From the NCBI GenBank assembly GCA_029263415.1, contig JAJCXN010000005.1, forward strand, positions 1-64,000: a stretch of DNA of 64,000 nucleotides, given 5' to 3'. The notes below the pieces were generated by a model, which saw only the letters and a list, made by a program, of their open reading frames with translations, ran no database searches and was not told the DNA's origin. A program made the translations under genes and the position numbers. This document shows, piece by piece, positions 2,749 through 35,737 of this stretch. The first letter of the stretch is position 1; every line of letters begins with the position of its first letter. Source of the DNA: Acidobacteriota bacterium (GTDB taxonomy: Bacteria > Acidobacteriota > Thermoanaerobaculia > Multivoradales > Multivoraceae).

Positions 2749-2765
2749 GGTAATGCTGCATTACC
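2749..2765. repeat. 17-bp near-perfect palindrome
   Basis: GGTAATGC and GCATTACC are separated by one base. The palindrome lies 60 bp from the preceding inverted repeat and is also far more AT-rich than its surroundings. It could be a repressor operator or a recombinase site from a lost element. Confidence 0.5.
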
Positions 2766-3056: not shown

Positions 3057-3623
3057 CTACATCGGGCCGGCACCTCTCGCTGGGGTGACGCAGGCCGCCG
3101 CCTCTTGGATCTCCGGCACGTCGTCAAGCAACCAATCCTGCTGAAGGAACAGTCGTACAGCAGCCAGCGTCGAGTCCGCGGGATCCGCTGCCACACCATC
3201 GGTCGCAAGGAAATGAAGTTCTAGCACTCTGCCGAATCTCAATCTAAACCCATCGGCTTCGGAAGTCATGTCCATCGGCACCCTCGGCCTGCCCTCCAGC
3301 CACACCAACCAGTCGGTTGCCGAGCCGACCAAGGAATGCCCAAATAGGCGATGCCAGGTTGCGATCGGCGAGACTGTTGAGCCACCAATGGAAAAATAGC
3401 CTGTTTGCAAAGCTATCCCGACTGAACTAATTCGAGCATCAGGAAGCGCATCACCGAGCGACGGCATCACCACCAAGCCTTCGCCCAGCAGGTACATCGC
3501 AGCCACTCCATCTTGGAGACACGAACTTTCGTGCTTCCCTAGCTCTGAGAGGTCCGCCCAGTAGCGAGGGCGTTTCATGGCGATCTGATTCCATAGCTCA
3601 ATTGTCGTCAACGAACCGCTCAT
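3057..3623 (-). CDS. Putative immunity protein for the RHS toxin
   Basis: A 188-aa protein of no family I recognise. Its ATG follows the RHS stop codon with no gap (TAGATG on the coding strand), exactly where polymorphic-toxin operons place the cognate immunity gene. It looks cytoplasmic, with mixed strands and helices, several Trp residues (such as YWADL and DWLVWLEG) and an acidic C-terminal half (DWLLDDVPEIQEAA), and no signal peptide. An acidic face would suit binding to a nuclease active site. Family knowledge supports the genomic position; toxin neutralisation is inferred from it. It is the last gene of the operon before the mobile-element remnant. Confidence 0.68.
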   Translation of the reverse strand: MSGSLTTIELWNQIAMKRPRYWADLSELGKHESSCLQDGVAAMYLLGEGLVVMPSLGDALPDARISSVGIALQTGYFSIGGSTVSPIATWHRLFGHSLVGSATDWLVWLEGRPRVPMDMTSEADGFRLRFGRVLELHFLATDGVAADPADSTLAAVRLFLQQDWLLDDVPEIQEAAACVTPARGAGPM

Positions 3624-6600
3624 CTACTCGATCCTCCCCTGGCCCGACGGAGAGTAGTCAACATTGGTCTGCCTCGGGAAAACTCGGCCATTATCAAAAG
3701 CATCTCGAACCAGTGCCTCAAGCTCGGGGTTGCCCAGGTCCAGTCGCTCAAGTGCTTCACGAACGTGTTTGCCCCAATCCGTCCTGACAAACGTCTTCGG
3801 AGTCGGAAATCTACCAACAGTAGACGACTTGACGTCGGTGACGAAGATGCGAAACTGACCACGAGAATCTAGTTGGGCCGTGATGAAGTCCGGCCCAGGA
3901 GCATTTGCGTGAAGCGGACTCTGGAGCCCGATCTCACCATCTCTGAGCGCCTGTTTGTACGCTTCGGCTTCTCCCAAAGCAGCCCTGATACTGGTCACTA
4001 TCGATCTCGAGGTCCTCGCCGATCCCATTACGGTGCCATTCTCCACTAGATTCGCACCTCGCGATTCAATGATGGCTGGGCCCGCTTCGGTTCCGCCGGA
4101 GGACGTCTGCTCTCCACCCCGTTGGCCAGCGTTCGTCTTCCTCACCAACTCCGGATCCGCACTCCCTGTGCCCACCTCGGCATCAGACCTCGACGCCCTC
4201 CTCCCACCTCTTCGCGCCGCCCTCACACCTTGCCCCGCCACACCTGCGCCAGCACCCAGTTCAGCAGCAAAGGCCGTAGCCCGAGTGACCGCCTCAGCGT
4301 CACCCGTCGCCACCCCGACCGCAGTATCCACAACAGATTGCCCAACAGCCTTCGCAACGGCCCCTGGGTTCTCGATCACGGTGCGCACGGCCGTACGGAC
4401 ATTCCGCTCCGTCTCGACCAACTCGTCGGCCGACTCTTGTCCAAGTGAGCTATTCGGGGCCGCACCCGCTACCAAAGCGTTCGCAACCACGTTCACGGCA
4501 TCAACCGCGCCTGCCGCCGTCTCTGCGCCAGCGCCCAGAACACCAAGCGCGAGCGCGGCATCGGCCTTGACAGATTGTGGGAGAAAGTCCAAATCGGAGA
4601 TCAGACCGGAAAGTTCAGCAGCAGCCTCCACGCCGCCCCTGCGGAACCGGTCAGCCAGTTCCCTGAGAATCGCGATCTCGCCCGTCGGATCCCAGTAGAC
4701 AGTTGGATTGACCTTGGCGTAGGTGTAGCGATGCAGCGAAGGCGGATCATCGGTAGTCCCCTCGAAGAGATCTTCACTCAGGAAGCGTCCGGCTTCCGGG
4801 TCATAGAATCTGGCCTTGGCGTAATAGAGTCCCGTCTCCCCATCCAGCTCGTGACCGGTAAACCCAAACGGGCTGAAGCTCGAGCCGGCACCACCCCGTG
4901 GATTGCCCCAAGCGTCGTACTGGTAGCGCGCTTGTAGTGCACCGGTCGACTTCACCAGGTTGACCACAGAGCCCAGGCCATCAAACGCGTAGTGCTGACG
5001 ACCTTCGGTCGTGTGATGCATCGAGAGGAGTCGGTCAGGACCGTACTCGTACTTCGAAATCGTGGCGCCGTTGTCGTCGGTTTGCTGCAATACCGCTCGA
5101 TCGTCGTAGACGTAGCGCACCACGCCATTCGGGCCGCTCTTGCGCACTCTCAAACCGGAGTGGTCGTAGAGGAAACGCATCAACATGCTGCCGCCATCAC
5201 TGATCTCGGTCAGCTGATTGCGCACGTCGAATTGCTGGTCGCGGATCGTGCCGTTTTGTGTGCGTGAGCGCTGGTTGCCGTTGGCGTCGTATGTATACGT
5301 AACCGTGCCAGACGCGTTGAGCGCATCACTCACTTGCGTCAGGCGATCGCGCGCGTCGTAGTTCCAGGTCTTGTCTGAGCTCGGCCCACCGGCCGAATCG
5401 ACCGTGATCTCTGTCAACCGGTTGCCCACTGCATCGTACGTGGTGGTGACGGTCTCCTCCGGATACGCCACCTCGATCAAACGATCGGATGTGTCGTAGG
5501 CGTAGGTCGTCTCTTCCATCGCTCCGCCGTTCACCTCCACTTGCGTCAGTCGATTGCCATTGGCGTCGTAGGTGTACACGTACGACGATGTGATGGCGGT
5601 GCTGACCGAGTTGGTGATGCTCTCGAGACGGCCCGCGCTGTCGTATGCCTGTTCTGTCACCAGGCCATCGGCGCTCACCGTGCCAGCCAGCTCACTCGCT
5701 CGCGTGTAGCTGTAGGTTGTGATCACCGGTTCACCACCCGTCGTGGTCAGGACGAATGACATCCGGTTCACGGCGTCGAAGTCGTAGCTCGTGACCGTAC
5801 CGTCAGCGTCTACCAGGCGCGTCCGATTGCCGTTTGGGTCGTAGTCGTAGTGAAGGTGTTCTCCGCGAGCATCCGTCACATCGCTCAAGCGATCGAAGTT
5901 GTCGTACGATCGCTGCGTGATTCGCGAGCCGGTCAAGCCGGAGTAGGTCTCGGTGATCTGCGTTGGGTTGGAGTTTTCGTCGTAGATACGCTCGATACGA
6001 AGCAGGTCATTTCCTGTGGGCACTTCCGGCAGCGCGAACTCTCGCAACGCCAGTCGGTTGATCACATCGAAGGCCGAGGCGGTTAACTGTCCCTTGTAGT
6101 CCCTCTCCTCCACCAAGTTCGAGGCACCGTCATAGCCCCACGAGCGACTCGCCTCTTGGCCCGTGCCTACTGCGGTGGTCATCCCCACGCGACGGTTCCA
6201 AGCGTCGTACATCGACGTCTTCCGGCGACCGTTGGCGTCGATCTGTGCACTGAGGTTCGAGGCCTTGTCATACTCAAAGAGCGTGGCGTGGCCCAGCGGG
6301 TCTGTCACGCTGGTCAGGCGATTGGCTGCGTCGTACTCGGAAAGCCACGGGGCTTCAGGATGCTGCGGACGGTGTACTTCGGTTCGGTTGCCTGCGAGAT
6401 CGTAGACAAACTCTGCTGTCTCACCCAAACCGTTCGTCTCACTCGTTTGCCTTCGTCGAACATCAAACGTGCGAAGCGTCAAACGACCCTCAGGATCAGT
6501 CTCCTCCACAACATCGCCCATCGAATCCCGCACAAAGTGTGTGATCGCAGCAAGAGGAGCGCTCTCTTGCAGCACGAGATTGCGCTCGTCATACACCCAC

Positions 6601-9600
6601 GTGGTTGTATTGCCGTTTGCGTCGGTAAGTCCGATCCGGTTTCCCTTGCCGTCGTAGGTGTTGGCCACCATCAATACGCCGTCGCGGCGCTGTTTCACAC
6701 GACGATTCTCTCGATCGAACGTGTGCTCAGTCACGATGCCCCGACCGTCGATCTCCTGCACCAAGTTGCCAACGGCGTCGTAAGCAAAGCCACGTGTGTA
6801 GTTCAGCGGATCCGGAGACGTCTCGAGCACAACGCGATTAAGAGCGTCGTAAGTGAAGCTTGTGGCGCGGCCCAACGCGTCAGTCTCAGTTAGGCGGTTG
6901 CCCGCGAGATCGTAGGTCGCGCTTGCCTCGTACGACGCGGGAGGGCCATCACCGCCGAGGCCTGTGCCCACGTCCGGAAAACGCGTCGTCACCAGGCGGT
7001 CTAAGCGGTCGTACTCAAAACGGGTCTCGCGGCCCAGGGCGTCCTCTTGAGAGAGTCGGTTGCTCACCACGTCGTAGCCATAGCTCTCCGTGCGATCTTC
7101 GGGAAGATGAGTCTCCAGTGCTCGGTTCAACCCGTCGTAGGTCGTCTCGGTGCGTCGACCCAAAGCGTCCTCGCTCGCGGTCACGTTGCCGCGGGCGTCG
7201 TACTCCATGCTCAAGAGCGGGCCAAGCGCATCCGAAGACGTGGTCGGCCGATTGAGCGTGTCGTATGTCTGCTCCACCTCATTGCCATTCGGCAGTGTGG
7301 TCTTCACCACGTTGCCAACCGCGTCCACCTCAAACTGTGTTTGCAAATTGCCGCTTGCAAGCTGCTCAAGTGTTTCGATTCGTCGGTTGCGAGCGTCGTA
7401 TGCATGCTCGATCCGAGACGGCCGAGGATCGATCTCGACAAGCAAATTGCCCACCGCGTCGTACTCGCGCGACGAAATGTTGCCTTCCGCGTCGACGCTC
7501 TCAACCAGGCGATTCAACCCGTCGTACTCGAACGTGCGCGACTGATGCGCCGGCACCCACGAGCCCTCAGACAGCTTTTCGTTGCTGATGACCTCCGCGA
7601 TCAGGTTTCCGTTGCCGTCCCACTCCCGCGTCGTCTCTGTCCTAGAGCCGGGACGAAAATCAGGAGCCGTGACCTCCACCAGACGATTGAGGCCGTCGTA
7701 AACAAAGGTCATCTCGCGGCCGAGAGCATCTCGCTCAAGCAACTTGTTGCCCTCGCCGTCGTACTCCATCTGCATCGCGGCAGTCTCGGCGCCGGCAAGC
7801 CGGCGCTTCTCTATCATCCGCCCGAGAAAGTCATACGCAAACTCCGTGCGTCGCCGCGCGAAGGTCGTATCGTTCACGTCGGTAGTCTCTTCAGAGAGCA
7901 CGTTGCCCACCGCGTCATAGCTGTACACCGTACGACGACCCTCGGGATCAAGCCGTTCGCTCAGTCGACCCAACAGGTCATAGGTGAAAGACCGCGACTC
8001 CGGAGGAGTGCCAACGTCTGACCACGAAACCTCAGTTGACTTGTCGCCAGCCGGATTGAAGATCACCTCGCGACGAGCTCCTGAGGCGTTCACCATCGCC
8101 ACCACGCGGCCTTCTCGATCAAACTCCGTGACGCTGGCGCGGCTAAGCGCATCGTGCTTCGTGACCATGCGGCCAACATCGTCATACACGGTGGTTTCGG
8201 TCCCAGCTTGACCCGGAACGGGCGGCAGTTCCTTTTGTGTCACGCGACCCAGCGAGTCGTGATCAAACGTTGTCAGCTCGCCACGAGCGTCACGCTGCTC
8301 GAGAGGAAGGCTTCTCGGAAGCCAGACCGTATCGGTCACGCCGCCTTCGGCATCGGTGACTTGCGAAAGATGACCGTACTCGTCGTATGCGAAAGACGTT
8401 CGATGCCCGTTGGCGTCGGTTGTGGAGGAACGCTGGCCGGTCGAATAGTAGGAGTGAGTCCGCGTCCAGCCGGCGACGGGTCCGCTCTCGCGCAATAGGT
8501 TTCCGGTCTCATCATAAGAGAACGAGAAGCTCGCGCCCTTGCGGTCGGTCCGCTGTTGTAGGCGCGTCTTGATCGCGTCAACGCCAGCCGGAGCGTTCGC
8601 CGGCGAAAACTCAGTTGGCGACCAGTAGCTCATCGTCCGTTCTGCCAGTTCGCCGAGCGCACCCACCACACTCTCCTTGGTGATGTTGCCGTGCTCGTCG
8701 TACTCAAACGAGGTGACCACTCCACGTCGATCGGTGTGTGAGGCGACCTTGAGATGCTCGAGGTTCCACGTGGTGGTCGAGGTCTCCTCCAAGGCATCCA
8801 CCATGCGCACCACCCCGCCCAACCGGTTGAGGAAGTAGTCCGTCTCGCCGCCGCGCGGATCGGTCACTACGGTATGCAACTCCAGAGCCGCAAACGTTGA
8901 CAGGCTTGTTGCGTCGTAGGCGAACTCGGTCAGGCCGCCTTCTGGGAGTTGGACGCCGGTTACTTGAGCTTGCTGCCTAACCACAGTTGGAGTAGCCGCG
9001 ATCGCACCGCTCTGCACGGTGTAGCTTGTGGTTGCACCACTGAGTCCGTTCGTCACCGAGGTCAGCGTGTGTCGCTGCACAAAGCTAGCATCCTGACCGT
9101 AGCCATATGTTTCGAGTCGGATGCCGTCTTCACGGCGCGCCTCGATCAGGTTGCCCCACTCGTCGTAGTCGAAGTCGACCCGGATACCGTCGGAGCCAAT
9201 CACCGAGTTGATAACAAATCCGCCGTCGAACTCGAACTCCCGGTACACGCTGTCGATCTGAAGCGAACGCCCAGAATCCTCCAACACGCCGGTCAACCGC
9301 GATGCGAGGCCTTCGCCACTGTAGGTGAGGGTGGTGCGGTTTCCGTTGGTGTCCTCAATGAACTCCAACGGCCACTCACCTTGGCCGCCTTCAAAGAAGT
9401 AGTGATAGCGGGTGCCGTCCGGAACGTAGAGGTCGTAGCTGGAGTCGTCCTCGTTAGTGACTAGGGTACCGTGATACCCCTGGGTCGGCACCCACTCACC
9501 ATCGTCCTCACCTGGGGAAAAGCGCATGCCGCTACCGGCTCCGCCCACAACTACGGCCTTGCCACAACCGTTCAGCGTGACCTTCGAATCGTACGAGTGA

Positions 9601-26800: not shown

Positions 26801-29800
26801 AAGGATTCGAACTTCGTACTCGCCGTCTGCGAGTCCATCGAGCGCCACGAGCTCCCGGCTCTGACCGTTCTCCTCGGCGCTGCCTGACGCAACAGGTACC
26901 AACGGACCCCCGAGTGGCCCGAACTCGACAGTGTAGAGGGACATGTGTTGATCGCTGACGCTCCCCGTCACACCGCTGCTGGCGTTGGCGAAGCCGCTCA
27001 AAGGAACTGTCAACGCGATAGTCGGCGGTGCCACGTCAACCTTCACCTCGACACGTTCGATCTGGATCAGACCAGGATCGGCGACCGAAGTGGCCGTCAC
27101 TTCAATGATGTAGCTGCCATCTGACGCAAGCGCGCCCCCATCGGTCCAGCCATCCCAGAGGATGGTGGACGAGCCGGAGGCTGGATCGCCGGCCACTAGG
27201 TTTCTAACCGGTAGCTCGGTTGCTGTATCCAGCACCAGCACAGTCAGCAAGACAGGCGACGTGGCCGACACTTCGAGCCTCGAAGCATCGGCAACCCCAT
27301 CCCCATTCGGCGAGAACACCACCGGATCAACGGACAGGTCGCTCACCAAAGTGAGAGGGGCGAGGATCTCCAAGGCTCGAAGGATCTCGGTACTGTTGCC
27401 GAGCACGTCGGCGCCGCGCAGACGAAGCATCACACTGCCAGTCAGCCCACCCGTGTTCCAGAGACCCAGCCTGGTCGGCTCTGCGCTCGCAAACCGCGAC
27501 AACAACTCCTCGTATCTACTAATCGGAGCAAAGACAGAGGGAGCGCTACCGATGCCGAAGTCAAGTTCCAGCCAGTCGAAACTGCGCAGCGTCGGCTCGG
27601 GCCGGATTTCGGTTGCAGTACCGAGGATCTCGATGAAGGTTGTGAACGAATCAGCGGTTTGCGGAAAATCAATCGACAAAACAGGCGGCTGCGTGTCTCT
27701 TGCAACAAAGCAGTCGACCTGCACGCTTCGGTTTCCGCAACTGTCTTCGACCACAGCGCGGACAGCGTAGATTCCGTCGGGCAGCTCATTCCCTTGATCG
27801 TCCAAGCCGTCCCAGACAAACTCCGACTGTCCTGCAAGAAAGGCCGACGAGGCGAGAGTGCGAACCGGATCAGCACCCGCAGTTGAGCCGGAACAGACGC
27901 TCAACTCGGCTGCGTCCCATACCTCAACACTCACCAAGCCGGGTTCTCCGCTCTCCACGGTGACCGAAACAACATCTGCAACGCCGTCGCCATTGGGAGA
28001 GAGCCCCTGGTACGGCCTGCCGCCCGGGGAGGACACGTGAACCGGAACACCTTCCACCATCAAGCGTGCACCATCGACGACCGAATCGACTTCGACGTTG
28101 AGCTCCTGACAGACTCGATTGCCTCCTCGATCTGCAAGTTCATACAAGAGGTCCAGAGGACCGTTACCTTCAAGTGCACCCAGACTTCCTGCGTACGACC
28201 TCGGTCGGGTCTCGGACACAGGGCGCTCTCCGTTCGATACCAGTTCAGGAACGATGAAGTCGGTCCTCGGCTGAAACTCGTAGTCGAGCTCGTCGAACAA
28301 CGAACCCTGAACTTCAGCGAGACCACAAATGCGCTGACCATTTGAGGGAAACGTAACATTCAAGACGGGCGGAGTGCGGTCGACCACAAGCTCCACCAAA
28401 AGAGCGGTTTCGAGGTCTGCCGTGTTGGTGAGCCGAATCACCGCGGACTGGACCCCCTCCTGCAAACTCGAGCTGTCGAAGACGAGCTCGTGCGGCTGCC
28501 CATCGGCCGGCAAGTTCTCGGAAGCCAGCACCTCTTCCCCCAAGGAGAGGGTGAGCAACTTCAACGGTGTACCGTCGAGTGACTTGGGGGTGACCAGCAC
28601 CCTAAAAAGGCCATTCCAAATCAGCGGTTCACCACATGCTGCGATTGGAATCGGCTGGACCTCGGCCTTGAGGCTCAGGCAACGCTCCTCGTAGCTAAGC
28701 GATTGCGAGTAGTGCAACCCGTCTGCCGCTACAAGATCTATCCGGACGGCATACACCGAACACGCGCGGACTGCACCGTCAAAAGCCATGATCCCGTCAA
28801 AGAGCGCAGCGCCATCGGACAATTCAACAAGATCGACCCGAGTTTCTACGGGATACCGCGGGTCATCATCACTCTGCAGGTAGAGAACAGCACTCTGTAA
28901 AGAGGTCGACGCGCGAGCCGCAAGGCTGCTGTTAACAGCGTCCGCGAACTCCAAGCCTCCTTCAGAGGCTAGCGCGTCGTCAACAAGTTCAGTGGGAGGC
29001 CGCCTCCCATAAAAATCAACGGAGACCTCAGAGAAGCGCGCGAACCGTACCGCGCCCGTATGCCGGGTCGCGCCCGCTTCATCTGAGATCTCTAGCCGGG
29101 CGACAACGATCGAGTCGCGATCGACCCCGTTGAGGTTCCACACGACGTCAAATGCGTGATCTGGCGTTCCCAACGATAGCTCGACTTCGCCAACTCGTGA
29201 AAGAGCAAGAGGGGCGGTCTCGAGCCAGGCGAGCTCGCTCTCGTCGGGAAGGCTCTGATCAAACAACCTGTACTGCACTACAACCTCATCTAGCGGTTGA
29301 CGCAGAAGCTCGGCCACGCGAAACCGCAGGCCACCCTCCTCCGGCATGAGCTCGGCACAAAAACGATCCCAATCGGGCGAAGTACAGGACACCCCATCGG
29401 GGGTATCTCCGTGGAGCCCCTCACCGCCAGCACCGCTGATCGGCCTCGCCAGGCCGGTCACCCCGTCCACACCGTCGGGACCGCTAGCAACCAGGCGCAG
29501 ACGTTCTTCAACTGGCGGCAGCAACTCAACGGTCTCGTTCCCTGCAACGTCACGGGCTCGCACCCGGTAAGACCACTCCAAGAGTTCTTCTGCAAGAAAC
29601 AGAACCGTGTGTCCAGTCGCAGGGACCACATCCGTGACCGCCTCCCATGAAGCGGGCGACTCGCCAAGTCCGCGTTCCACGGTTCCGGGGAGGAAAGGAT
29701 CGAGATTTGGATCGGTGATATCCGTGCGCAACTCACCATTCGGCGGCGCTGAAAGTGAAACATGCAGGCTAGAGTCCACCCTGGGCCCGGTGCGATCTAT

Positions 29801-32800
29801 CTCGAAGAACAGTTCGAAGTGCTCCATGCGAACCGAATAGCGGCCGTCCTCAACAAACGAGCCGCTCTCGTCCCGTCCGTCCCAGCTCAAGGATCGCAGC
29901 CCGATCGTCGCTTCCTCTTGAACAAAACGGCGAACCACCAAGCCGGAAGAGTCCGCAACCTCAATGAGCAGCTCGATGGGGCTCAGCACCCGATAGTCCA
30001 CCGTCAAGAAATCACGAACACCATCACCGTTCGGGGAAATCAACTTTGGGTAGACCGAGATCTCACCCAGGGATGAGGTCCTTGGAACCGAGAACTGTCG
30101 AAGTGAGCTCTCGCGGTTCCCAGCCAAGTCTTCGACCGTTAAGCGAAGCCTGTAGACACCAGCCTCGGCCGGGGCCCAGACAGTGAGGACATCATTCACC
30201 ACACCTTGATCCGAGGGGACGTCGATCGGCCGCCAAAGATCTGGCGTCTCTACGTTCGCGTACTCGAGCCACCATCGGGCGAGGTTGAGATCGGCTGCCG
30301 TACCAGAGATTGAGACGACTCCCGTAGGCTCGCGTTCGGCCTGCACTTCTGCCGTTAGGTTGGCAAGCGAGCGGAGCACTCGCCCAGCGCCGTTCGAGGC
30401 ATTGCATTCGCCCTGATCGCGCCTTACTAGGGAGAAGATCCGTCTGCCGCTGGACGCCGGCATCGGATCGAATCCGTAGATCGACCGCTTCCAGGTTCTG
30501 CTGCGCAGCGACACACCAAGGTCGAAGCCCAGAAGAAGATCCCCTGTACCTGGGAGCAGAGTGAGTCCTTGGGCATGTTCGATCAACGAGCGACCTTCGT
30601 GATCCCCTTCGGGGTCCTGGACGAGAGGGCTGTTGATCCCGTCGCCCACAAAGCCCCCCTCTCTGGCTCCTAACGATCCACCGAAATGCGCCTCGACCAA
30701 CGAAATCAACCCCTCACCGCTCCCATCGCTCTCCGGTAGCCCGCCTTCGCAGTCCGCTACAGGGAAGCCACTAGCCAGCCACGTCCATTCATGGTTACCG
30801 GTATCAAGGAGATAAGTGTTGGTCCAAACCTCGCTGCATCCGGAGAACAGGAGTTCAGTTTCCAAGCTCACCAGTACGGTCTGGCCGTCGTCCGTTGCCG
30901 CGAGGTCTCCGGCAACCGTTCCCACTACTTCAACAGAGGTTCCACCTTCCTCCTCGCCCCCGACACCGTCTGGTTCAAGCGACCTGCCCAGAATCCCAAC
31001 CGTCATCGCAATGTTTGGGAAGGGAATCAATCGTTCTTCGCTGCCGTCAGCACGGAAGAAGCGCACTACGTCGTCGCTCCCGTCTGCGATCACGACCCGC
31101 CCGTTACCGCCACCGAGAAACAGTGCTTGAGACTGGCTGAAGTCATAGCCGTGAAGCTCATCCGCCGCGCCAGTTTCGAGGTTCAAGCGGATAGCAAGGG
31201 TGTTGCCGGCCGCGGACTCGCGCAGAAGCAAATGAGTCCCGTCGTCCGAGAAGTTGCCAGGTTCCTCTTGTTGAAAGCCCGGCAGCCGAAGTGGCCGAAC
31301 CGAACCAGAACCGCGATACAACTCGATCGGAGGCCCGGAGCTGGTTAGCGGCACTCGATACACAGCATCGTCCGAGTGCGCAATCGGTTCGAACGAACCA
31401 GGCGGGAAGCCAACGACCTCCAGGAAATCTGTTCCGGCTACTTCGAAGACTTGCTTGGTTTCGAGATTCGCTATCGCCACGCGGCGGCCCGGAAGAGTCT
31501 GATAGGTAGCCAGACTTTGCGACTCATCCACAAAGGCTCCCCCGATTCCGACTTCGCTGTCGATAAGTCGCTCTGAGTGCTCTGAGCCAACTGCCACCGC
31601 AACTCGATAGAGCTCCATTCCGCGCGAGTAGAAAAAGAATTCCTCGTCAGCACTGACGCGCGATTCACCCATGAAGTGACTCTCCTGGCAAGCCAGCTGA
31701 AGCTCATCCTCATACTGAGTACCGAAGGCCTGGACCAACGACGATCGGTTATTGTCGACGACCACTGCGACTTCGGCGATCTCCACTCCGGCATTGTCCA
31801 CCAGCCGCAGCGAGTAGATGCCGTCGGCGACCACCCGGCCGTCTTCGTCTCGACCATCCCAAGAAACGCTATCTTGCGCCGACACCGGTACGAGATCAGT
31901 CGGTTCGACCACGACCTCGCCGAACTCGTCAACTACGCGCAACCCGATGTCGGTTGCTACACCCACGTCAAAGACGACCTCGGTCGCGTCCTGCACACCA
32001 TCACCATTTGGCGAAATGAAGGTCGGGACAGCAAACGTCGATTCTCCCGACCCGGCAACCGACAAGGAGGCGCGATTGTTGTCCTCTCGAACCTCCGCCA
32101 CGACATCGAAAGCGTCGGCGACGACGGTCAAGAGAGGACGAGTGAACTCCTGCTCCAAGGTCCACTGCACATCGACCGTCGCGACGGACAGACCCGTCAC
32201 GGAGGCTTCTAACGTTGCTAAGAGGATTCCCTCTTCAGGCAATCCGTCGTACACATGAAGGTCGGAGACGGGCGTGCCCTGGCCACCCAAGTTCGCGAGT
32301 TGAACATGAAGATTCACCGCCGTTCCAACAGTTGGGAATCGAGGACTGAGTGCGAGCGAAGCACTCGACAGCGCGAGGTCCGGAGCAGACGAGACCGCGA
32401 CTTCCAGAAACGTCAGATTGTTGTCGCGCGAGAAGTCGTTCACCTGCTCGGCTCGATCGAGCATCACGAATAGGGTTGCATCGTCTGCAAGCGGAAGCTG
32501 GGCAACCATCAGGTCCGTCGTGGCAATCGAGTTCGCGGCCACGCTGACCACCGCACTAGCAAGCAACTGGCCTCCCAGTCTAGGGTCGGCCGAGAATAAC
32601 TCCACCGTCACGGCCGGTACCGCCACATCACCATCGTTGTGCACCGTTGTCGCAACCGCGAAAGGCTGTCCCTGAAGTGCAGGATCAAGGCTCGGCGTTA
32701 GATCCGCAGCGGAGATCCGAAGGTCCGGAGCACCCAGAATTCCCACCGCGATCGGGAAGTTCGCAACGTTATTGTCCTCATGGCTTTCCGGCTGCAAGTT

Positions 32801-35737
32801 AAACGGGTCGAGCGCCAGCCTGAGAATCAAACTCCCCTCGCGATCCACGGTCCACGGAACGATGAGGGTCTGGTGCGAACCGGCGGCGACGTTGAGGTTC
32901 TCGCTCAGCAGTTCAATGGTGTCCAAGCCGTCCACCAGCAGCACTCGCACCGGAACATCAGTCGCGTTAGAGGTCCCCCGATTGCGCAGGCTCAGCTCAA
33001 GCGTCACACTCTCGCCAACCGCCAAAGGTCCCTCAACGTTCAACAGATCGTCGACAGCGACGAGATCCACATTGGGCACTCGCGGCACGACAATCGTAGC
33101 TCGATCATTGAAAGGGTCTTCGTCCCCAACGGTGCCATCAGGATCGACGACAAGCTCCACTGAATAGTCCACTGGCTGATCGGCTTCGAAAGCCAACGCT
33201 ATCGGCTGCGAACTCCGCGCGGGCACACCGGCAAGGTCCTCGCGGGCTACCACTGCGCCGCCGACTCGCAGTTCCACGGCGGTCGGCCCAGCTGCGGTAA
33301 GCCCCAAATTGCGAAGTACTGCTGCGACCGTGATGGTCGTCGGCAGGAGCTCGAAGTTGGCTGGAGTGACGATGAGTTCCGACGCTTCCACGGACAAATC
33401 AACTCCGTCAATGGGCTCAAGCACCTCGAGCCCGAGGACCGCCAAGTTGTCGACGGTTGATAGCTCGGTCACAAACTGCTCTTCGTCCAACACAAAATGC
33501 AACGGATGAAAGCCGGAAGCACCTGTGGTGTCCCAGATGGCGGACAACGACAGGCGCGTGCCGGGCGCGACGACAGCGAGTGGAAGCTCCTGTAGGAGGA
33601 CTCCGAACTGAGGATCCCCGTCGTAGATCCGTACGGTCGTCTCCAGCGTCGCCTGCGCGCCGTTGTTGAGCACCTCGAACTCCAAGTCCACGCGATCGCC
33701 GTCTCGCGGCAAGGTTGGTCGAGCAATCGGCGATCCGAAGAACATCAAATTCGAGACCGTGGACCGGCGCAGTGCGTCAATAGCTAAAGCCGTCGCCGTC
33801 ACACTGCCATTCCAGCTGCCTTCGAGACTTTGATTGGTGTCGAGGTAGATCAGCGCAGCGGCACTATCGATCGCGCTACTCCCAAGTAGGAGCGCACGTG
33901 CGGTGTCAGCCGCGGAACTGACCGGACTACCAAAGCCCCCGTCGGGGCGCTGCTGAGCCACAAACCAGGCGCGGGCCGAACTCTCTGCAGACTCCACGGA
34001 CGCTGCAACAGCGCCCACAAGTACGGGGCCACTTGTCGCCATGGCTTCCAGCACCTCGAAGGTCGCGAGCAGCCGGCTCGCTCCCGCACGAGTGACCCCG
34101 AAACTGCCGTCAGCATTCTGGCTGGACGCCAGAAAGGAAAGCGCCGACTCAAGACCGGAGTCAACGGTCCCCGCACTAAGCAGTGCCTTGATCGCCAATG
34201 CCGTATCGAGGACATCGCTCCCATAGTCCGTGGACAATCCCCAACCACCATCAACATTCTGAGAACCGAGCAGAAAGCTCGCTGACTCTGGCAGCGGCCC
34301 CAGACGCAGCAGCCGGCGCGTGTGGTCTTCGAGGGACTGAGCCGGTTGACCGAGCAGCCAACGATCCGCGTCGTCGAGTCCGCTGAACATCGGAGCGGCA
34401 CCCTCGAGCGCATCGGCGGCAAAGACCGTGTCGCGGTAACGAGTTGCCGCGCGGTCGGCCCAAGAACCGTCCACCTGTTGACGGGCTTCAAGCCAAGCAA
34501 TGGCGTCGGAAACTGATGCCGCTGATCGGACGGGACCACCACCCACTGGGGTGGGCTCCCCCGGATCAGCGTCGCCCTCTCCCAAACCAGAGAACGAGAC
34601 CTGTCCACGCCCGCCAGTCAGAACGGAAAAGTGCTGTTCAAAATCACGCTGCAGGCGGCGGAGTCGAGAGAGAGCCGCATCCGTCACCACATGATCGGGG
34701 CGGCGCAGAACAAGCGTTGCGAAGTTGAATTGCCTTTGCGCCTCGTCGAATGAGGGTTGCCGTGAGCCTTCCACTGAGATGACGTCCTCGATCGAGACCT
34801 CCATCAAGGCATCGGCTGCGACCGTGGCCCCTGGGGTCGTAAACAACCGCTCCTCGCCGTCGCCTTCAAGCAGCACCATGGGTGCTACCGCGTCCGGCGA
34901 CAGGAAACCGGCCAGGTACAGATCGAAGGGGTTGTACACCGGACGAGCGGCAAGTGCGGTGAAGGTGCCATCTCCGTTAGCGCGCCAGTCGTTCCCATAC
35001 ATCAAGGTGCCCCGCCCCGTATCCGCAAGGAACGACCAATGTGAAGCTTGGTGTCCGAGCAGTGCGCCGCTAGGCTGACCCTCGGAATCCCTAAAACGAA
35101 CGTTCACTCCCCACCGATGCATGACCTCGTGCGACAGCAGCTCCAGCACTGTCGCATAGCCACTACGGCTTGGATCTAGCTGCCAACCATGCAGCCACCG
35201 CATGTCGATGTAGCTGTGCAGGCGGCTCGGACTACCGAATGAAGCACCGTTGTCGTAGATCGGTATCCCGATGCCCTCGACTCCGTTGCGGACTCCGGTA
35301 TGTGTCGCAAGTGCTTCTCGCCCCTGCGCCCCACGGTTGTCGTACTCGAAAGTCGTGAAGACGATCACGGCGTCGTAGTCATCCGCGCTTGCCTCGAAGA
35401 AGGCCCGGGCCACGGCCCCGCGAGGTTCAACGTTGGGCAGGCCGGACGAGTCCAGATAGTCGTATTGGTCTTCGGTCGTGAGAACGAAAATGCCCTCTCG
35501 ATCCTCCACGAACGTCGCGGCCCACTGGCTCGAGGCCAGTAGCGGCTCCAATACACGCACAACATCGACCGGAGCCACGGACCGGCTCTCGCGATCTCCC
35601 AATGACGGTTTGCTGTTGCTAGCCGCTTCCGCTTCTCCCGGCACCCCAGCTGCGAGTACCGACGCGAGAATCAGCGACTTCCTAAGCCGCGAACTCGCAA
35701 GAAGAACATGAGGCATCCAACCACTCAATCGCAACAT
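14897..35737 (-). CDS. Giant secreted multidomain protein (CARDB, FlgD-Ig, FN3, Calx-beta, SD repeats)
   Basis: About 6946 aa from ATG 35737 (GTG 35761 and ATG 35716 are alternatives); a Sec signal ends near GEAEAAS. In order: a zincin-like region with HEVMH at ~203-207; alpha-toroid repeats with QxxDGxW/F motifs (~408-650); about five CARDB domains (~664-1235); four SPNGDGxxD-plus-FlgD-Ig units (~1240, 1900, 2580, 2810); FN3/Ig-like repeats (~2830-4150); an embedded discoidin-like domain (~3820-3950); TolB-like propeller segments (~1370-1700 and ~4200-4560); more CARDB/Ig repeats; Calx-beta (~5490-5570); an SdrD-B-like domain (~5586-5650); a duplicated Rossmann-like domain (~6062-6250 and ~6740-6946); DUF11 (~6265-6380); Calx-beta (~6400-6500); and a Ser-Asp tract (~6610-6643). 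It is probably an extracellular or surface adhesin with a protease domain. No LPXTG or T9SS sorting tail is visible. Its stop overlaps the RHS start. Confidence 0.9.
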   Translation of the reverse strand: MLRLSGWMPHVLLASSRLRKSLILASVLAAGVPGEAEAASNSKPSLGDRESRSVAPVDVVRVLEPLLASSQWAATFVEDREGIFVLTTEDQYDYLDSSGLPNVEPRGAVARAFFEASADDYDAVIVFTTFEYDNRGAQGREALATHTGVRNGVEGIGIPIYDNGASFGSPSRLHSYIDMRWLHGWQLDPSRSGYATVLELLSHEVMHRWGVNVRFRDSEGQPSGALLGHQASHWSFLADTGRGTLMYGNDWRANGDGTFTALAARPVYNPFDLYLAGFLSPDAVAPMVLLEGDGEERLFTTPGATVAADALMEVSIEDVISVEGSRQPSFDEAQRQFNFATLVLRRPDHVVTDAALSRLRRLQRDFEQHFSVLTGGRGQVSFSGLGEGDADPGEPTPVGGGPVRSAASVSDAIAWLEARQQVDGSWADRAATRYRDTVFAADALEGAAPMFSGLDDADRWLLGQPAQSLEDHTRRLLRLGPLPESASFLLGSQNVDGGWGLSTDYGSDVLDTALAIKALLSAGTVDSGLESALSFLASSQNADGSFGVTRAGASRLLATFEVLEAMATSGPVLVGAVAASVESAESSARAWFVAQQRPDGGFGSPVSSAADTARALLLGSSAIDSAAALIYLDTNQSLEGSWNGSVTATALAIDALRRSTVSNLMFFGSPIARPTLPRDGDRVDLEFEVLNNGAQATLETTVRIYDGDPQFGVLLQELPLAVVAPGTRLSLSAIWDTTGASGFHPLHFVLDEEQFVTELSTVDNLAVLGLEVLEPIDGVDLSVEASELIVTPANFELLPTTITVAAVLRNLGLTAAGPTAVELRVGGAVVAREDLAGVPARSSQPIALAFEADQPVDYSVELVVDPDGTVGDEDPFNDRATIVVPRVPNVDLVAVDDLLNVEGPLAVGESVTLELSLRNRGTSNATDVPVRVLLVDGLDTIELLSENLNVAAGSHQTLIVPWTVDREGSLILRLALDPFNLQPESHEDNNVANFPIAVGILGAPDLRISAADLTPSLDPALQGQPFAVATTVHNDGDVAVPAVTVELFSADPRLGGQLLASAVVSVAANSIATTDLMVAQLPLADDATLFVMLDRAEQVNDFSRDNNLTFLEVAVSSAPDLALSSASLALSPRFPTVGTAVNLHVQLANLGGQGTPVSDLHVYDGLPEEGILLATLEASVTGLSVATVDVQWTLEQEFTRPLLTVVADAFDVVAEVREDNNRASLSVAGSGESTFAVPTFISPNGDGVQDATEVVFDVGVATDIGLRVVDEFGEVVVEPTDLVPVSAQDSVSWDGRDEDGRVVADGIYSLRLVDNAGVEIAEVAVVVDNNRSSLVQAFGTQYEDELQLACQESHFMGESRVSADEEFFFYSRGMELYRVAVAVGSEHSERLIDSEVGIGGAFVDESQSLATYQTLPGRRVAIANLETKQVFEVAGTDFLEVVGFPPGSFEPIAHSDDAVYRVPLTSSGPPIELYRGSGSVRPLRLPGFQQEEPGNFSDDGTHLLLRESAAGNTLAIRLNLETGAADELHGYDFSQSQALFLGGGNGRVVIADGSDDVVRFFRADGSEERLIPFPNIAMTVGILGRSLEPDGVGGEEEGGTSVEVVGTVAGDLAATDDGQTVLVSLETELLFSGCSEVWTNTYLLDTGNHEWTWLASGFPVADCEGGLPESDGSGEGLISLVEAHFGGSLGAREGGFVGDGINSPLVQDPEGDHEGRSLIEHAQGLTLLPGTGDLLLGFDLGVSLRSRTWKRSIYGFDPMPASSGRRIFSLVRRDQGECNASNGAGRVLRSLANLTAEVQAEREPTGVVSISGTAADLNLARWWLEYANVETPDLWRPIDVPSDQGVVNDVLTVWAPAEAGVYRLRLTVEDLAGNRESSLRQFSVPRTSSLGEISVYPKLISPNGDGVRDFLTVDYRVLSPIELLIEVADSSGLVVRRFVQEEATIGLRSLSWDGRDESGSFVEDGRYSVRMEHFELFFEIDRTGPRVDSSLHVSLSAPPNGELRTDITDPNLDPFLPGTVERGLGESPASWEAVTDVVPATGHTVLFLAEELLEWSYRVRARDVAGNETVELLPPVEERLRLVASGPDGVDGVTGLARPISGAGGEGLHGDTPDGVSCTSPDWDRFCAELMPEEGGLRFRVAELLRQPLDEVVVQYRLFDQSLPDESELAWLETAPLALSRVGEVELSLGTPDHAFDVVWNLNGVDRDSIVVARLEISDEAGATRHTGAVRFARFSEVSVDFYGRRPPTELVDDALASEGGLEFADAVNSSLAARASTSLQSAVLYLQSDDDPRYPVETRVDLVELSDGAALFDGIMAFDGAVRACSVYAVRIDLVAADGLHYSQSLSYEERCLSLKAEVQPIPIAACGEPLIWNGLFRVLVTPKSLDGTPLKLLTLSLGEEVLASENLPADGQPHELVFDSSSLQEGVQSAVIRLTNTADLETALLVELVVDRTPPVLNVTFPSNGQRICGLAEVQGSLFDELDYEFQPRTDFIVPELVSNGERPVSETRPRSYAGSLGALEGNGPLDLLYELADRGGNRVCQELNVEVDSVVDGARLMVEGVPVHVSSPGGRPYQGLSPNGDGVADVVSVTVESGEPGLVSVEVWDAAELSVCSGSTAGADPVRTLASSAFLAGQSEFVWDGLDDQGNELPDGIYAVRAVVEDSCGNRSVQVDCFVARDTQPPVLSIDFPQTADSFTTFIEILGTATEIRPEPTLRSFDWLELDFGIGSAPSVFAPISRYEELLSRFASAEPTRLGLWNTGGLTGSVMLRLRGADVLGNSTEILRALEILAPLTLVSDLSVDPVVFSPNGDGVADASRLEVSATSPVLLTVLVLDTATELPVRNLVAGDPASGSSTILWDGWTDGGALASDGSYIIEVTATSVADPGLIQIERVEVKVDVAPPTIALTVPLSGFANASSGVTGSVSDQHMSLYTVEFGPLGGPLVPVASGSAEENGQSRELVALDGLADGEYEVRILAQDLAGNQSLVERPFVLDTVAPDVALVFPTEGTSLTNAVDLVTVAQGRIADENLESYRLEIGSGSAPSSWTQISSGSDNVDGALAQLEFAGVADGVASLRLVGSDRAGNETEARVEVVVDTSPPQIAITEPLDRSFATGPSEILGTVQDASLLRYALTLTDQIGSGAAQVLGVGSAPVDAGLLGVWSSLPADGEYTLVLHAQDRAGQQSELSLAITVDQTSPSAPTGLSLSAQQGASGEAGVQVSWSANPEADVAGYRITRAGLALHELLAATSLVDEGLGEGEVEYQVVAIDHAGNRSEPAGASVRIDFTPPEVSITAPAGGARISGLTELRGTAHSNDFLTYRVYVTAGSAARSLIRESPLPVRLDTLGVVETNGFAEAQSLILEVEAEDLDGNVAVDSITVVVDNQPPATPAGLQILATDSDIGLTWTANTEPDLHGYVVVRNGSWIGAESGASDARTIAIEGTSFQDFGRPDGRWTYSVVAVDVAGNVSAPSSPVEADIDERVPTAFITTPEQGIEFDAELFVAAQTLDEDVVQVAFEARQVGTSSWQPIETDSAEPWEVVWAGSALELGIYELRAVASDASFADQNPGTISVTRADLTAPAAPTGVSAQGDGSAVDLTWQANVETDLAGYVVDRFDSGTDVAIRLMPNPVAAASYEDLDLGGLGLSDGIYEYQVRAVDAAGNESQPSELVVARVFSFELLQPATPTASGTLPELEAIATLIDNVDYEVFVDVGSGPSLVVSGATDSQGRVELLDVALALGVNTFAAQATDAAGNRSRTSAARVVRGTLPSVPTGLVSQSSGLTVDVTWNANPESDVVGYLVSRDGELIVPERLSLASNVVASSSQFGADATNALDGDSFTFWAPTTAAASLDAWIEFGFAERQMLERMEIDWLGDDTLLMGAQSFRVLAWDGETWAPIAERDNSFASHLSLDFEPAYRTDRVRLEVLTPHSPQFFGLSQVVLEGRSLQEATEFSQTVADGSYIFGVAAVTSLGLIGPEAIADPLDVGDTEAPEPVTLTVVSDGESTAILSWTASPSLDVQRYLIERDGVVVHTSDDLVSLTWTDGPLLNGEYSYIVRAVDVVGNVSVASNAASVQIARAPLSAPTVVLDATAELDVALSWSPGAGTPAGFDILRGLVGGGPYELVASTSALQHVDTVPVSGVTYFYVVAATDAAGNRGLLSNEVETHPVSTAVVEPPSFLLPTSTGDVHEVSQLSVNIAGLGGEGLVALFRNNALVTTSTSSQVPTETALGVLDGPTALLSADGRSVIGSFLGGDSSILGVANAEVPIEGGAWDYTVLSSSGFLSSWAGPNRLLYADSSDVHLVVLEPGQGTGPPTVQSDSVVWSGDSLIAVSAAPTGEIAVIVDYDFAQGVEVVYTLSLVDLSVASVGELPGVAGHTLQLTSDALFAAAARWDRTGLVLLDLATGVNTTHSGAEVVRPAFSPDGGRVYFSNTTQGIDVVDVVTGLRAEVVSASEPVLHPRVSPLGDQLAYFDQGSSSVVLLNLGSGEEQALQPLTPTSVSWLDWSESGRLLIVGTAPQGWQAFVVSQVSGFWFQGVSLDPGLNVFSATLTTPQGLTSESSEPMKILLTEESLPDYSINGFELQSLPSVARVGDALELSAVVRNAGGLEAPAATVVARVEHPDGTATLLGAGPIGPMAPGQFQALTWQFPIGILGDHRLVVSIDPAGDVAEFDESNNYAELLIPAVTAEPNVTLALDRLIVDPADILNISTSIRAGVVPFGGVAELLIEDQQGFLVMALREVPLDLPAAASLPLEDEFAAETVLAGDYRARLVLKDASGSTATEAIANFSVAAQSTFSLQLTLNGTAFTRNQNIGAEASISYLLGNVLAEGLAVEFELLDPSGTEVVAASQSLPSVLAGTTVVEVFSWQPSSLTQLGRYVANLRLVDSSEPPQTISTAAVPLDLVATAPSLIGTLVLESGSVSGGEELALEANIANAGESGHPVTAARVLVRTSDLSSVVRAESFPVDLAGFGEIAQAVAFATADLGLGRYVVVLEADVSDGDGGLVSVVLATAEALLIDAEQPELEVRSPSQGGFVGVGGKALVFTFDRLSAIDRLEIRYDGGEWKRVPLVGSSASLFPSLVPALSEATHTVEARATDLSGNQRQSSTIDFTVDLTAPLVEIVGITDGQESDVAVIPEIVVTDDYLESYSVALNGSEFVSGTQIDTPGFYRLVVVARDLANNQTGLTVEFEVSHSLNLAGTLVLPAEVAAGDDLVAAYQLTNVSAEPVVDALVRGIFVSEYGLIEELVTSAFDLAGNGTLSGELLFGADVVPGEYTVVLEVLPSTSGTPLFIEAAATLVIEPPLQTIQFVTPLGGALEPGEVSVEVEELNPDTIVSVVIGADGGPAVPMVALGDGRFGLVLLLPDGSHDLAATGTDVGGEEGLSAEVTFTVDASDPVITFTGVTDGQVSLGPVTPIFTVADDHLDTAIARLNGQPFVSGAEISAVDSYSLSVSAVDQVGNQSTVSVQFSIFPQLDLFDASVVESAGVVHISAALSAPSSELVTATLELFPDTATAGTDFNASPIAVEFQPGQTAITVAVAIVDDNLVELEELFTASVSGLNNAFAGAQSTVTILDDDVPEVVGLQGRVWYDLDRDGAVDADESRLSGVAVSVIDTAGETVTSATTSAAGAFGFDLYPGDYTITVDPSTLPNALVDPTFDEDGRDTPHTALVALSPSGLMDVDFGYADFECPPDLDFDFDAGGVAMEAGATVTDQWASWGVLISTPTGSGQRATLFNTVLLGSGDSSLGSPNEHFLGSGVGAGGESASPGANLEAEGLVLIVSTAETGEPVTSAAGELVFEFDVPVWLQSVRLLDASTGRIRAYSAQSSLIRDVPIPNLGLNAAQTVPLGLVGVTRLEVQFDTRGSVTELGFCGECLPLDFEAAPEGLVLTDGDLVTDQFAEWGVVFDSDASGGELATLLDTELSAVAELSSPHQDFGGGGFGTGGGASLRTANAWAQGLGVKLPAGGSANGVLIADFFEPTRVEAVVTLGVRGGEVRAYNEFGVLVSSVGLPDIGGNALQRTVLGANGVMRLEIESNAGGVLARVEICADRATLPGDVLLVVGAEQPLARADELILARLAGLGLNATVLEDVSVAPADVDGRSLIVVSSTVDPAELVGVFTHAAEPVVTWESELYADLGLSGTIVDVDYGGLEAQAVVEFLDHGLLPGVPTSGRASLVHTLSPMPWARPGEAAIVLAAVASDPELAAAFAYEQGSQMAGLVAPARRAGLPLHDESPIALSQAGWSLFDAVIAWALGESSMQVDKHVVLLEDENGDGWVNPGDRLRYTIQVTNPFDGLRAGLVLEDSLPEGLVLVPGSVSVVGGQLLNTEPRIEAELDPLGVGESASVSFWADVHSDWALADTTVSNQALVMGPESTSSSDDPTTSEAFDPTVTPVYLGTSVSVLEGVALESAGEVRFPVVLSQPTNHPIALEFAVGGGSAGVDDFAINDPVLLVPAGATEAHFSVQLLDDFVEEDTEDFRLSVVLASHSMWAVLDTNEVAGTIEDDDAAVGCPPTLDFEKDAAGNDLSSGEPVSEQWSALGIHVASNSPATSPIIFDSSNPSGSDRDLGTPHRDFKGSGRGSGGEQDAEGENAWARDNILVLWGDDSDSGSDSDSDSDSDSDSDSDSDSDSDSDSDSDGGSGSNLGAMGGTLVFTFDDPTPVSSVGVLNADGGEVRVYDASGALIASSLIEDVGTNGFQQVEVASGAALVHRLEIELQGAAAVTEVQFCSAPVVPAGSALLVAKSTRLKAADHLVQRRLEMAGFEVEVVDDHDVLSADGEGKALIVISSTVSSNRVRTKFTDSPVPLVTWEAWLFDDLEMTGTQSGHDYGKQGNQSRVLVDVQLTETTLGLQLPELLTLQTANTLSWAVPVGEPLILATQEDNSERATVFAFETGADMRSRAAPARRLGLPFHNNTATGLTEDGWKLFDAAIRWLVANPGA
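15810..15909 (-). repeat. Ser-Asp coding microsatellite inside the giant gene
   Basis: About 100 bp of six-base units (variants of TCNGAN/GAYAGC) encode an uninterrupted run of Ser-Asp dipeptides ending in GGSGSN. SD tracts are known as flexible stalks in Gram-positive Sdr/Clf adhesins. Here one sits near the C-terminus of a Gram-negative protein. Third positions vary between units, so this is not a perfect microsatellite and is probably under protein-level selection. Confidence 0.85.

What the first reader, a model, noticed from the sequence alone, without database searches (positions are those of the whole stretch)
3057..35737. A 32.7-kb coupled operon: ~6.9-kDa-residue-scale giant surface protein, RHS toxin and immunity candidate
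Three minus-strand genes abut (TGATG overlap, then TAGATG with zero gap). The first encodes ~6946 aa with a zincin-like motif, CARDB, FlgD-Ig, FN3, discoidin, Calx-beta and SD modules. The second encodes a ~3757-aa RHS protein with a nuclease-like tip. The third looks like its immunity gene. RHS toxins are normally paired with VgrG/PAAR (T6SS) or Tc-toxin parts; here the partner is a giant secreted adhesin-like protein, and both proteins have Sec-like signals. This suggests a contact-dependent delivery or surface-display arrangement that I do not know from the literature.
Basis: partly seen in the sequence, partly recalled or inferred. Interest (0 to 1): 0.85.

Follow-up and report, generated by a model that had tools for sequence, protein, structure and literature searches.

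The report
Giant surface protein paired with toxin
A bacterium related to Acidobacteriota carries a three-gene unit (a huge, probably secreted multi-domain protein, a caged toxin-like protein and a small gene that is probably its antidote), and related bacteria keep the first two side by side while swapping the toxin tip and antidote, which suggests a new kind of partner for a known class of bacterial weapon.

Summary
Three minus-strand genes abut: a 6,946-aa giant (14897-35737), a 3,757-aa RHS protein (3624-14897) and a 188-aa gene (3057-3623).

The pairing is conserved: in 14 of 14 judgeable loci (13 in the window's phylum, one in a Lysobacterales MAG) the giant is followed on the same strand by an RHS gene of the same type.

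Among 11 RHS proteins the cores match in 55 of 55 pairs and the tips in 1 of 55 (marginal). Downstream genes match in 0 of 45 pairs of 10. Four of 12 downstream genes scanned are known immunity families (SUKH, pentapeptide); two SUKH genes follow tips recognised as HNH-type nucleases. This is the signature of polymorphic toxins.

The TG module and a toroid or giant neighbour stay linked in 20 of 21 judgeable loci, also where gene order is reversed or RHS is replaced by an M23 peptidase.

Best reading: a Sec-exported RHS toxin held through its TG domain on a giant surface stalk. Docking, export route and delivery are inferred. RHS toxins with a dead TG domain are already published; I did not find the giant/toroid partner in print.

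The parts
14897..35737 (-). giant multi-domain protein, 6,946 aa from ATG 35737 (6,954 from GTG 35761)
34402..35548 (-). HExxH...H zincin-like head (motif-level) and start of the toroid
   Evidence: alignment A2: His, Glu, His of HExxH and the later His of HWS invariant in 13 of 13 rows; AF2 mean pLDDT 79.6 but no PDB fold match
33842..34216 (-). alpha/alpha-toroid (squalene-hopene-cyclase C-terminal type) stretch
   Evidence: PF13243;
15821..15907 (-). Ser-Asp (SD) repeat near the giant's C-terminus
   Evidence: 12/24-bp tandem repeat; translation
3624..14897 (-). RHS protein, 3,757 aa: Sec-like N-terminus, inactive transglutaminase, DUF6531, RHS repeats, Rhs-associated core, C-terminal tip
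13416..13640 (-). transglutaminase-like domain without the catalytic Cys
   Evidence: PF01841 at residues 421-495 of P0002; no Cys at the catalytic position in 17 of 17 aligned TG domains
3624..4679 (-). variable tip after the core motif WDPTG; PD-(D/E)xK-like letters GPDFI...VTDVK read by eye
   Evidence: 351 aa; 1 marginal match among its 10 tip pairs; no family match; AF2 of the last 172 aa failed (pLDDT 39.7)
3057..3623 (-). 188-aa immunity candidate, no signal-like start
   Evidence: no match in Pfam, PADLOC, NCBIfam or plasmids; one weak 53-residue hit among 296 other genomes of the phylum

Best explanation
This is a Sec-exported RHS polymorphic-toxin locus with a dedicated giant surface partner. 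Shown by sequence: three abutting genes; a conserved pairing of giant and TG-RHS gene; a conserved RHS core with exchanged tips and exchanged downstream genes; a transglutaminase domain that has lost its catalytic Cys; linkage of that domain with a toroid protein in several architectures. Inferred: both large proteins cross the inner membrane by Sec and reach the outside. The giant forms a long Ig-like stalk with a zincin/toroid head. The RHS protein docks on it through the dead transglutaminase, most likely on the toroid. The RHS shell encloses the tip and cuts it loose at the Rhs-associated core. On contact with another cell the tip, probably a nuclease, is delivered, and the 188-aa protein neutralises it inside the producer.
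For: Giant then TG-RHS on the same strand in 14 of 14 judgeable loci, including a second pair in the same genome and a Lysobacterales MAG. Within-genome control: of the four RHS loci found (150 of 177 first-look candidates were scored), the two with a TG domain have the giant, and the two without (C48, C51) have none in the stretches read. Of four toroid loci in the genome, two are these giants, one is a true squalene-hopene cyclase and one has no TG module beside it. Giant heads and RHS N-terminal regions co-diverge (Mantel r 0.957, 9 of the 14 pairs, p 5e-5). Cores 55 of 55 pairs, tips 1 of 55, downstream genes 0 of 55 (0 of 45 without a locus that proved not to be RHS). Of 16 TG-RHS genes with a visible 3' end, 12 have a same-strand ORF of at least 100 aa within 50 bp. 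SUKH follows an LHH nuclease tip (G060:C383), a Tox-SHH nuclease tip (G024:C43) and an unclassified tip (G052:C14); a pentapeptide protein follows G116. The downstream protein of the Tle1-like tip in G041:C626 starts like a lipoprotein (lipobox read by eye). No Cys at the TG catalytic position in 17 of 17. The TG/toroid link survives reversed gene order and other cargo.
Against: No expression, secretion, toxicity or binding data. Tip and 188-aa protein match no family and the tip model failed. The giant's C-terminus is not conserved: by eye, tails are a YWKNH-type domain, a VWA-like domain, a TM tail or other, and the window giant has no visible membrane anchor, so surface display is weakest for this very member. 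One TG locus (G052:C187, a 541-aa protein without RHS) has no toroid within the 20 kb read. Three TG-RHS genes (G374, G360, G212) are followed by the toroid gene and not by an antidote-like ORF, and one (G043:C50) only by an ORF of about 75 aa. Eight of 12 downstream genes scanned match no Pfam family. Co-divergence could be plain shared descent of the genomes.
Confidence: 0.6

Rival explanations
1. The locus is a Sec-exported RHS toxin plus immunity gene, and the giant is a separate adhesin/protease that is only co-expressed with it, for example to hold cells together while the toxin acts; the two proteins do not bind.
For: The giant has adhesion-type modules, and relatives of its head occur as separate proteins, mostly of about 550-1,400 aa, in genomes without the RHS type. 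Raoelijaona et al. describe RHS-like toxins that carry adhesion modules in their own chain (PMC13018210, section 6).
Against: The linkage is strict and specific: 14 of 14 giants, TG-RHS genes only in the own-genome control, and TG/toroid linkage also without RHS.
Confidence: 0.22
2. The pair works against prey or on complex food, not in rivalry with kin: the HExxH head and the tips digest other cells and the third gene is not an antidote.
For: HExxH head; cargo other than RHS behind the same TG module: an M23 peptidoglycan peptidase in G003 and an alpha/beta hydrolase domain in G043:C9; three TG-RHS genes lack an antidote-like ORF. Giant proteins have been interpreted as weapons of predatory bacteria (PMC12057145, passages).
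Against: SUKH and pentapeptide proteins follow four relatives' RHS genes, two of them with HNH-type nuclease tips; downstream genes turn over with the tips.
Confidence: 0.12
3. Tc-like machine: the giant is the injection or pore-forming partner of the RHS cage.
For: RHS cages pair with a large partner in Tc toxins (recalled). One relative (G360) has a sub-threshold TcdB_toxin_midN match (16.3 bits against 24.8).
Against: No Tc-type domain among the Pfam hits of the window's giant or RHS protein; the giant is made of Ig-like stalk domains and both proteins have their own Sec-like starts.
Confidence: 0.04

Closest known systems
Polymorphic toxins with an inactive N-terminal transglutaminase and RHS repeats (Zhang et al. 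2012, PMC3482391; passages seen)
   Same: Signal-like start, dead transglutaminase, RHS repeats, variable C-terminal tip, gene downstream
   Different: The paper suggests that the domain anchors the toxin by binding peptides; the passages I saw name no giant or toroid partner gene, and the terms CARDB and FlgD do not occur in the 300,000 characters held
Bacterial teneurin-like proteins (Raoelijaona et al. 2026, PMC13018210; outline, passages, sections 6 and 10 seen; Jackson et al. 2019, PMC6425310, passages seen)
   Same: Exported RHS/YD shell toxins with variable C-terminus and a tested downstream immunity gene; Ig-like, CARDB and similar repeats upstream of the shell
   Different: There the adhesion modules are in the same polypeptide and the superfold has FN-plug and NHL domains; here the stalk is a separate giant protein and the N-terminal module is a dead transglutaminase
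T6SS Rhs effectors (PAAR/VgrG type; recalled)
   Same: RHS core and variable tips
   Different: Sec-like start, no PAAR or VgrG among the Pfam hits, no VipB match in the genome
CdiA/CdiB contact-dependent inhibition (recalled; listings and passages only)
   Same: Large exported protein, variable tip, small immunity gene
   Different: No TPS or haemagglutinin-repeat domain among the Pfam hits; the giant partner has no outer-membrane transporter domain among its hits

Membership tests
RHS polymorphic toxin | RHS repeats and Rhs-associated core | tested here: met
   PF05593 E 1.1e-128; TIGR03696 E 2.7e-19, 69.4 bits against 32.5
RHS polymorphic toxin | conserved core with variable C-terminal tip | tested here: met
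   cores 55 of 55 pairs, tips 1 of 55 pairs at E 1e-3
RHS polymorphic toxin | cognate immunity gene directly downstream | tested here: inconclusive
   position and turnover fit, and 4 of 12 downstream genes scanned are SUKH or pentapeptide; the 188-aa protein itself matches nothing
RHS polymorphic toxin | toxic activity of the tip | not testable with these tools
   needs an expression assay; AF2 of the tip failed; relatives' tips include LHH, Tox-SHH and Tle1-like domains
inactive-transglutaminase RHS toxins (Zhang et al. 2012) | TG after the signal peptide, catalytic residues lost, RHS repeats following | tested here: met
   PF01841 at 421-495; no Cys at the catalytic position in 17 of 17 (position of the motif recalled; G027:C45 has a Cys two residues away)
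bacterial teneurin-like proteins | TEN YD-shell over its cut-off | tested here: not met
   39.3 bits against a cut-off of 50
bacterial teneurin-like proteins | FN-plug and NHL domains before the shell | tested here: inconclusive
   no such Pfam match, but the region was not modelled in 3D
T6SS Rhs effector | PAAR/VgrG and a T6SS in the genome | tested here: not met
   no PAAR or VgrG among the hits; VipB 0 matches in the own genome; no other T6SS family was searched
Tc toxin | SpvB/TcdB-type domains and a TcA partner | tested here: not met
   none among the Pfam hits of the window's RHS protein and giant; no genome-wide TcA search was made
CDI two-partner secretion | TPS domain and CdiB-type transporter | tested here: not met
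   no TPS domain among the Pfam hits; no CdiB search was made in the genome
zincin metallopeptidase (giant's head) | HExxH plus candidate third ligand, conserved | tested here: met
   invariant in 13 of 13 rows, candidate third His invariant
zincin metallopeptidase (giant's head) | zincin fold | tested here: inconclusive
   no Foldseek match at E 0.001; best VIA-align Z 4.1

The most novel reading that the evidence does not exclude
The dead transglutaminase and the toroid protein are the two halves of a general carrier-and-dock module for surface-displayed cargo. RHS toxin cages are one cargo; an M23 peptidoglycan peptidase (G003) and perhaps an alpha/beta hydrolase (G043:C9, partner side cut off) are others. 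In the window's lineage the dock has grown into a 7,000-aa stalk. This would be a new two-partner way of displaying polymorphic toxins in diderm bacteria, distinct from T6SS, CDI, Tc and teneurin-like toxins.
Probability: 0.4. Interest if true: 0.82.

Novelty: new variant of a known kind. Interest (0 to 1): 0.64.

Why it matters
How Sec-exported RHS toxins of diderm bacteria are displayed and delivered is open; the 2026 teneurin-like toxin paper says that no delivery machinery is obvious (PMC13018210, Discussion). A strictly linked partner gene gives a concrete candidate and a concrete interface (dead transglutaminase against toroid) that can be tested. It would also give a role to one class of giant bacterial genes, and a reason why inactive transglutaminases persist in toxins.

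Tried and rejected
Tested and dropped: T6SS origin (no VipB match); a Tc partner (no domain); chance adjacency (14 of 14); a generic association of RHS genes with giants (C48 and C51 lack the TG domain, and show no giant in the stretches read).

Led nowhere: fold of the tip (pLDDT 39.7); fold search with the head (no Foldseek match at E 0.001; VIA-align best Z 4.1); plasmid search for tip and third gene (no match); tip and third gene in 297 genomes of the phylum (tip in its own genome only; third gene in its own plus a 53-residue hit at E 5.5e-4 in G319); PDB sequence search with the tip (one chance-level hit, E 0.67); promoter/terminator scan of 2200-3700 (nothing above chance); PMC13274458 (passages: RHS and transglutaminase genes only as separate table rows). 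A small gene of about 190-220 aa with a signal-like start, just upstream of the giant in five relatives, has a T2SSC (GspC-like) match in one of five (E 0.015, 15.5 bits against 27) and no convincing PDB match (best E 0.82); no ORF like it was recognised upstream of the window's giant, so I built no T2SS route on it. The genome has three secretin matches and an exosortase match over its cut-off (30.8 bits against 25.7); neither was tied to this locus.

Not judged in the giant count: loci cut by contig ends (G043:C42, G049:C49, G080:C203, G101:C59, G057:C221, G122:C240, G123:C103) and loci not fetched to their 3' end (G041:C593, G052:C184, G058:C134, G024:C32). Not judged in the TG/toroid count: G060:C383 (two tandem TG-RHS genes; the upstream side is the contig end, no toroid in the 4 kb read downstream), G043:C9, G457, G080:C110, G024:C31, G024:C43, G058:C349, G058:C475, G060:C111, G060:C415, G101:C100, G123:C342, G135:C165. 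Weak partial A1 hits (short TG or Ig stretches in G147, G162, G187, G199, G229, G285, G339, G366, G450) were left out.

Corrections made on the way: a first tip count (0 of 45) used a wrong cut for the C54 protein and left out G043:C43; it was redone (1 of 55). G043:C9 was first taken for an RHS locus; Pfam shows TG, an Ig-like domain and an alpha/beta hydrolase domain and no RHS repeats, so its downstream ORF does not belong in the downstream count (0 of 55 becomes 0 of 45). G043:C50 has no downstream ORF of 100 aa and is absent from that count.

Full report
OBSERVATION. The giant runs from 35737 (ATG; the frame is open to a GTG at 35761) to 14897, the RHS gene from 14897 to 3624, the small gene from 3623 to 3057, all on the minus strand. 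The junctions read GCGTGATGTCG and GAGTAGATGAGC, so the first pair overlaps (TGATG) and the second abuts. Codon-position GC is alike in the three genes and along seven samples of the giant. A named-genome scan with the RHS N-terminal alignment returned 11 loci: nine in records titled Acidobacteria/Acidobacteriota or Thermoanaerobaculia/Thermoanaerobaculales, one titled Deltaproteobacteria and one Lysobacterales, all MAGs.

WHAT THE PROTEINS ARE. Giant: HExxH head, alpha/alpha-toroid (squalene-hopene-cyclase type), CARDB, CHU_C, FlgD_ig, Ig-like and fn3 stretches, F5/8 type C, Calx-beta, SdrD_B, DUF11, SD repeat. The residues of HExxH and a later His in HWS are invariant in 13 of 13 aligned heads. 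AlphaFold2 gave mean pLDDT 79.6, but neither Foldseek (no match at E 0.001) nor VIA-align (best Z 4.1) recognised the fold, so 'zincin' rests on the motif. RHS protein: Sec-like start (by eye; hydropathy does not by itself separate it from internal stretches), transglutaminase-like domain, DUF6531, RHS repeats, Rhs-associated core, 351-aa tip. No Cys stands at the catalytic position of the transglutaminase in 17 of 17 aligned domains, the window included (motif position recalled; G027:C45 has a Cys two residues away). The tip carries PD-(D/E)xK-like letters by eye, with no family match and a failed model. The tip of the second copy in this genome (C54) has a sub-threshold Tox-REase-9 match (E 0.0067, 17.1 bits against 27.3).

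THE PAIR IS CONSERVED. The RHS N-terminal 1,700 aa were found in 17 of 147 genomes and the giant's head region in 38 of 147, own genome included in both. In a phylum draw of 396 genomes the RHS N-terminal model hit 21 and the head/toroid model 74; many of the latter are shorter proteins, mostly of about 550-1,400 aa, without a giant. I then read neighbourhoods. Giants whose next genes can be seen: window, G000:C54, G002:C53, G026:C21, G036:C195, G041:C626, G041:C242, G043:C50, G043:C43, G052:C14, G060:C366, G116:C120, G476:C7 and the Lysobacterales genome G496:C8. All 14 are followed on the same strand by a gene with the TG-RHS N-terminal module. In G041:C242 short ORFs covering about 2 kb, and in G476 one 127-aa ORF, lie between; in G036 the giant's span is divided among abutting ORFs; in G060 and G041:C242 the contig ends inside the RHS gene. 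Eleven further giant-type loci could not be judged (listed under Tried and rejected). The C54 and G043:C43 giants begin with the toroid and have no HExxH head. Giant heads and RHS N-terminal regions diverge in parallel: Mantel r 0.957, p 5e-5, 9 of the 14 pairs, the other five lacking a head or a long enough N-terminus. This shows co-inheritance but cannot be told from shared descent of the genomes. Within the genome, RHS loci C48 (Kelch, HINT) and C51 lack the TG domain and show no giant or toroid in the stretches read. The RHS scan found four loci, with 150 of 177 first-look candidates scored. The genome has four toroid loci: the two giants, a true squalene-hopene cyclase (C44), and one without a TG module beside it (C1).

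POLYMORPHIC-TOXIN PATTERN. For 11 RHS proteins with a readable core end, cores match in 55 of 55 pairs and tips in 1 of 55 (window against G052, 27% over 120 aa, E 8.8e-4); downstream genes match in 0 of 55 pairs of 11, or 0 of 45 without G043:C9, which proved not to be an RHS locus. Recognised tips of relatives: LHH nuclease (G060:C383, E 6.7e-20) and Tox-SHH nuclease (G024:C43, E 8.2e-10), Tle1-like phospholipase (G041:C626), DUF6765 (G496). Recognised downstream genes, 4 of 12 scanned: SUKH behind the LHH tip of G060:C383, behind the SHH tip of G024:C43 and behind G052:C14 (the last at 25.5 bits against 25.4), and pentapeptide behind G116; the other eight, the window's included, match nothing. 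The downstream proteins of G041:C626 and G496 start like lipoproteins (by eye). Of 16 TG-RHS genes with a visible 3' end, 12 have a same-strand ORF of at least 100 aa within 50 bp, one (G043:C50) only one of about 75 aa, and three (G374, G360, G212, RHS repeats confirmed) are followed by a toroid gene instead.

THE DEEPER LINK. The TG module and the toroid stay together when the rest changes. In G374, G360 and G212 the toroid protein (about 720-780 aa) lies downstream of the RHS gene; in G027 two TG proteins without RHS lie next to toroid proteins, in opposite orders; in G003 a TG protein ending in an M23 peptidase is followed, after one propeller-like ORF, by a toroid protein with a PEP-CTERM-like tail (tail named from memory). 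In G043:C9 the TG module carries an alpha/beta hydrolase domain, but the partner side is cut off by the contig end. Counting the 14 giants, 20 of 21 judgeable TG loci have a toroid or giant neighbour; G052:C187 (a 541-aa TG protein without RHS) does not.

MECHANISM. Shown: gene order, conservation, tip and downstream-gene turnover, dead TG, TG/toroid linkage. Inferred: Sec export; a surface stalk; TG docking on the toroid; release of the tip by the Rhs core; delivery on contact; neutralisation by the 188-aa protein. Some giants of relatives end in a short motif, a hydrophobic stretch and a basic tail (G002, G041:C242, and a giant fragment in G080), which fits anchoring by an exosortase-like route (recalled; the own genome has one exosortase match over its cut-off). 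The window giant has no such tail. No VipB sheath gene was found.

COMPARISON. Zhang et al. 2012 (PMC3482391; passages) describe dead transglutaminases after a signal peptide and before RHS repeats and suggest anchoring by peptide binding. Bacterial teneurin-like proteins (PMC13018210; outline, passages, sections 6 and 10) are exported RHS shells with a tested downstream immunity gene and adhesion modules in the same chain; Jackson et al. 2019 (PMC6425310; passages) mention Ig-like and CARDB repeats there. The window's protein falls short of the TEN_YD-shell cut-off. I therefore file the locus as a new variant: a known toxin type with a separate giant partner. My eight paper searches show no description of that partner; the library lacks most subscription journals and the bioRxiv collection, and I saw listings, not the full text of every paper listed.

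SCORES. Polymorphic toxin with a conserved giant partner: about 0.85. Docking and display as written: about 0.45. Combined statement 0.6. Interest 0.64.

Noticed in passing
G000:C54, loci L085 and L035: Second giant/TG-RHS pair in the same genome: toroid-headed giant (open frame 6,879 aa), RHS of 2,386 aa with 4-bp overlap, then a 408-aa ORF.
   Followed up: yes
L186 (G003:C940) 63-4885: Mini-version without RHS: transglutaminase plus M23 peptidase protein, a propeller-like ORF, and a toroid protein ending in a PEP-CTERM-like tail.
   Followed up: partly
L076 (G043:C9) 2-6736: TG module followed by an Ig-like domain and an alpha/beta hydrolase (DUF900) domain instead of RHS repeats; a 354-aa ORF overlaps its end.
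   Followed up: partly
L092, L093, L095, L097, L087: Small gene of about 190-220 aa with a signal-like start just upstream of the giant in five relatives; weak T2SSC (GspC-like) match in one of five. Possible hint of a T2SS route.
   Followed up: partly
L101 (G060:C383): Two TG-RHS genes in tandem, each followed by a small ORF; the first has an LHH nuclease tip and a SUKH gene behind it.
   Followed up: partly
window 40896-42551: 551-aa protein with about 66-aa tandem repeats (198-bp unit) and no Pfam match.
   Followed up: no
window 61516-62109: PHA-synthase-subunit/phasin-like N-terminus followed by a repeat tail with a weak histone H1-like HC2 match.
   Followed up: no
window 1068-2237: Schlafen AlbA_2 domain protein near the end of the toxin locus, opposite strand.
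   Followed up: no
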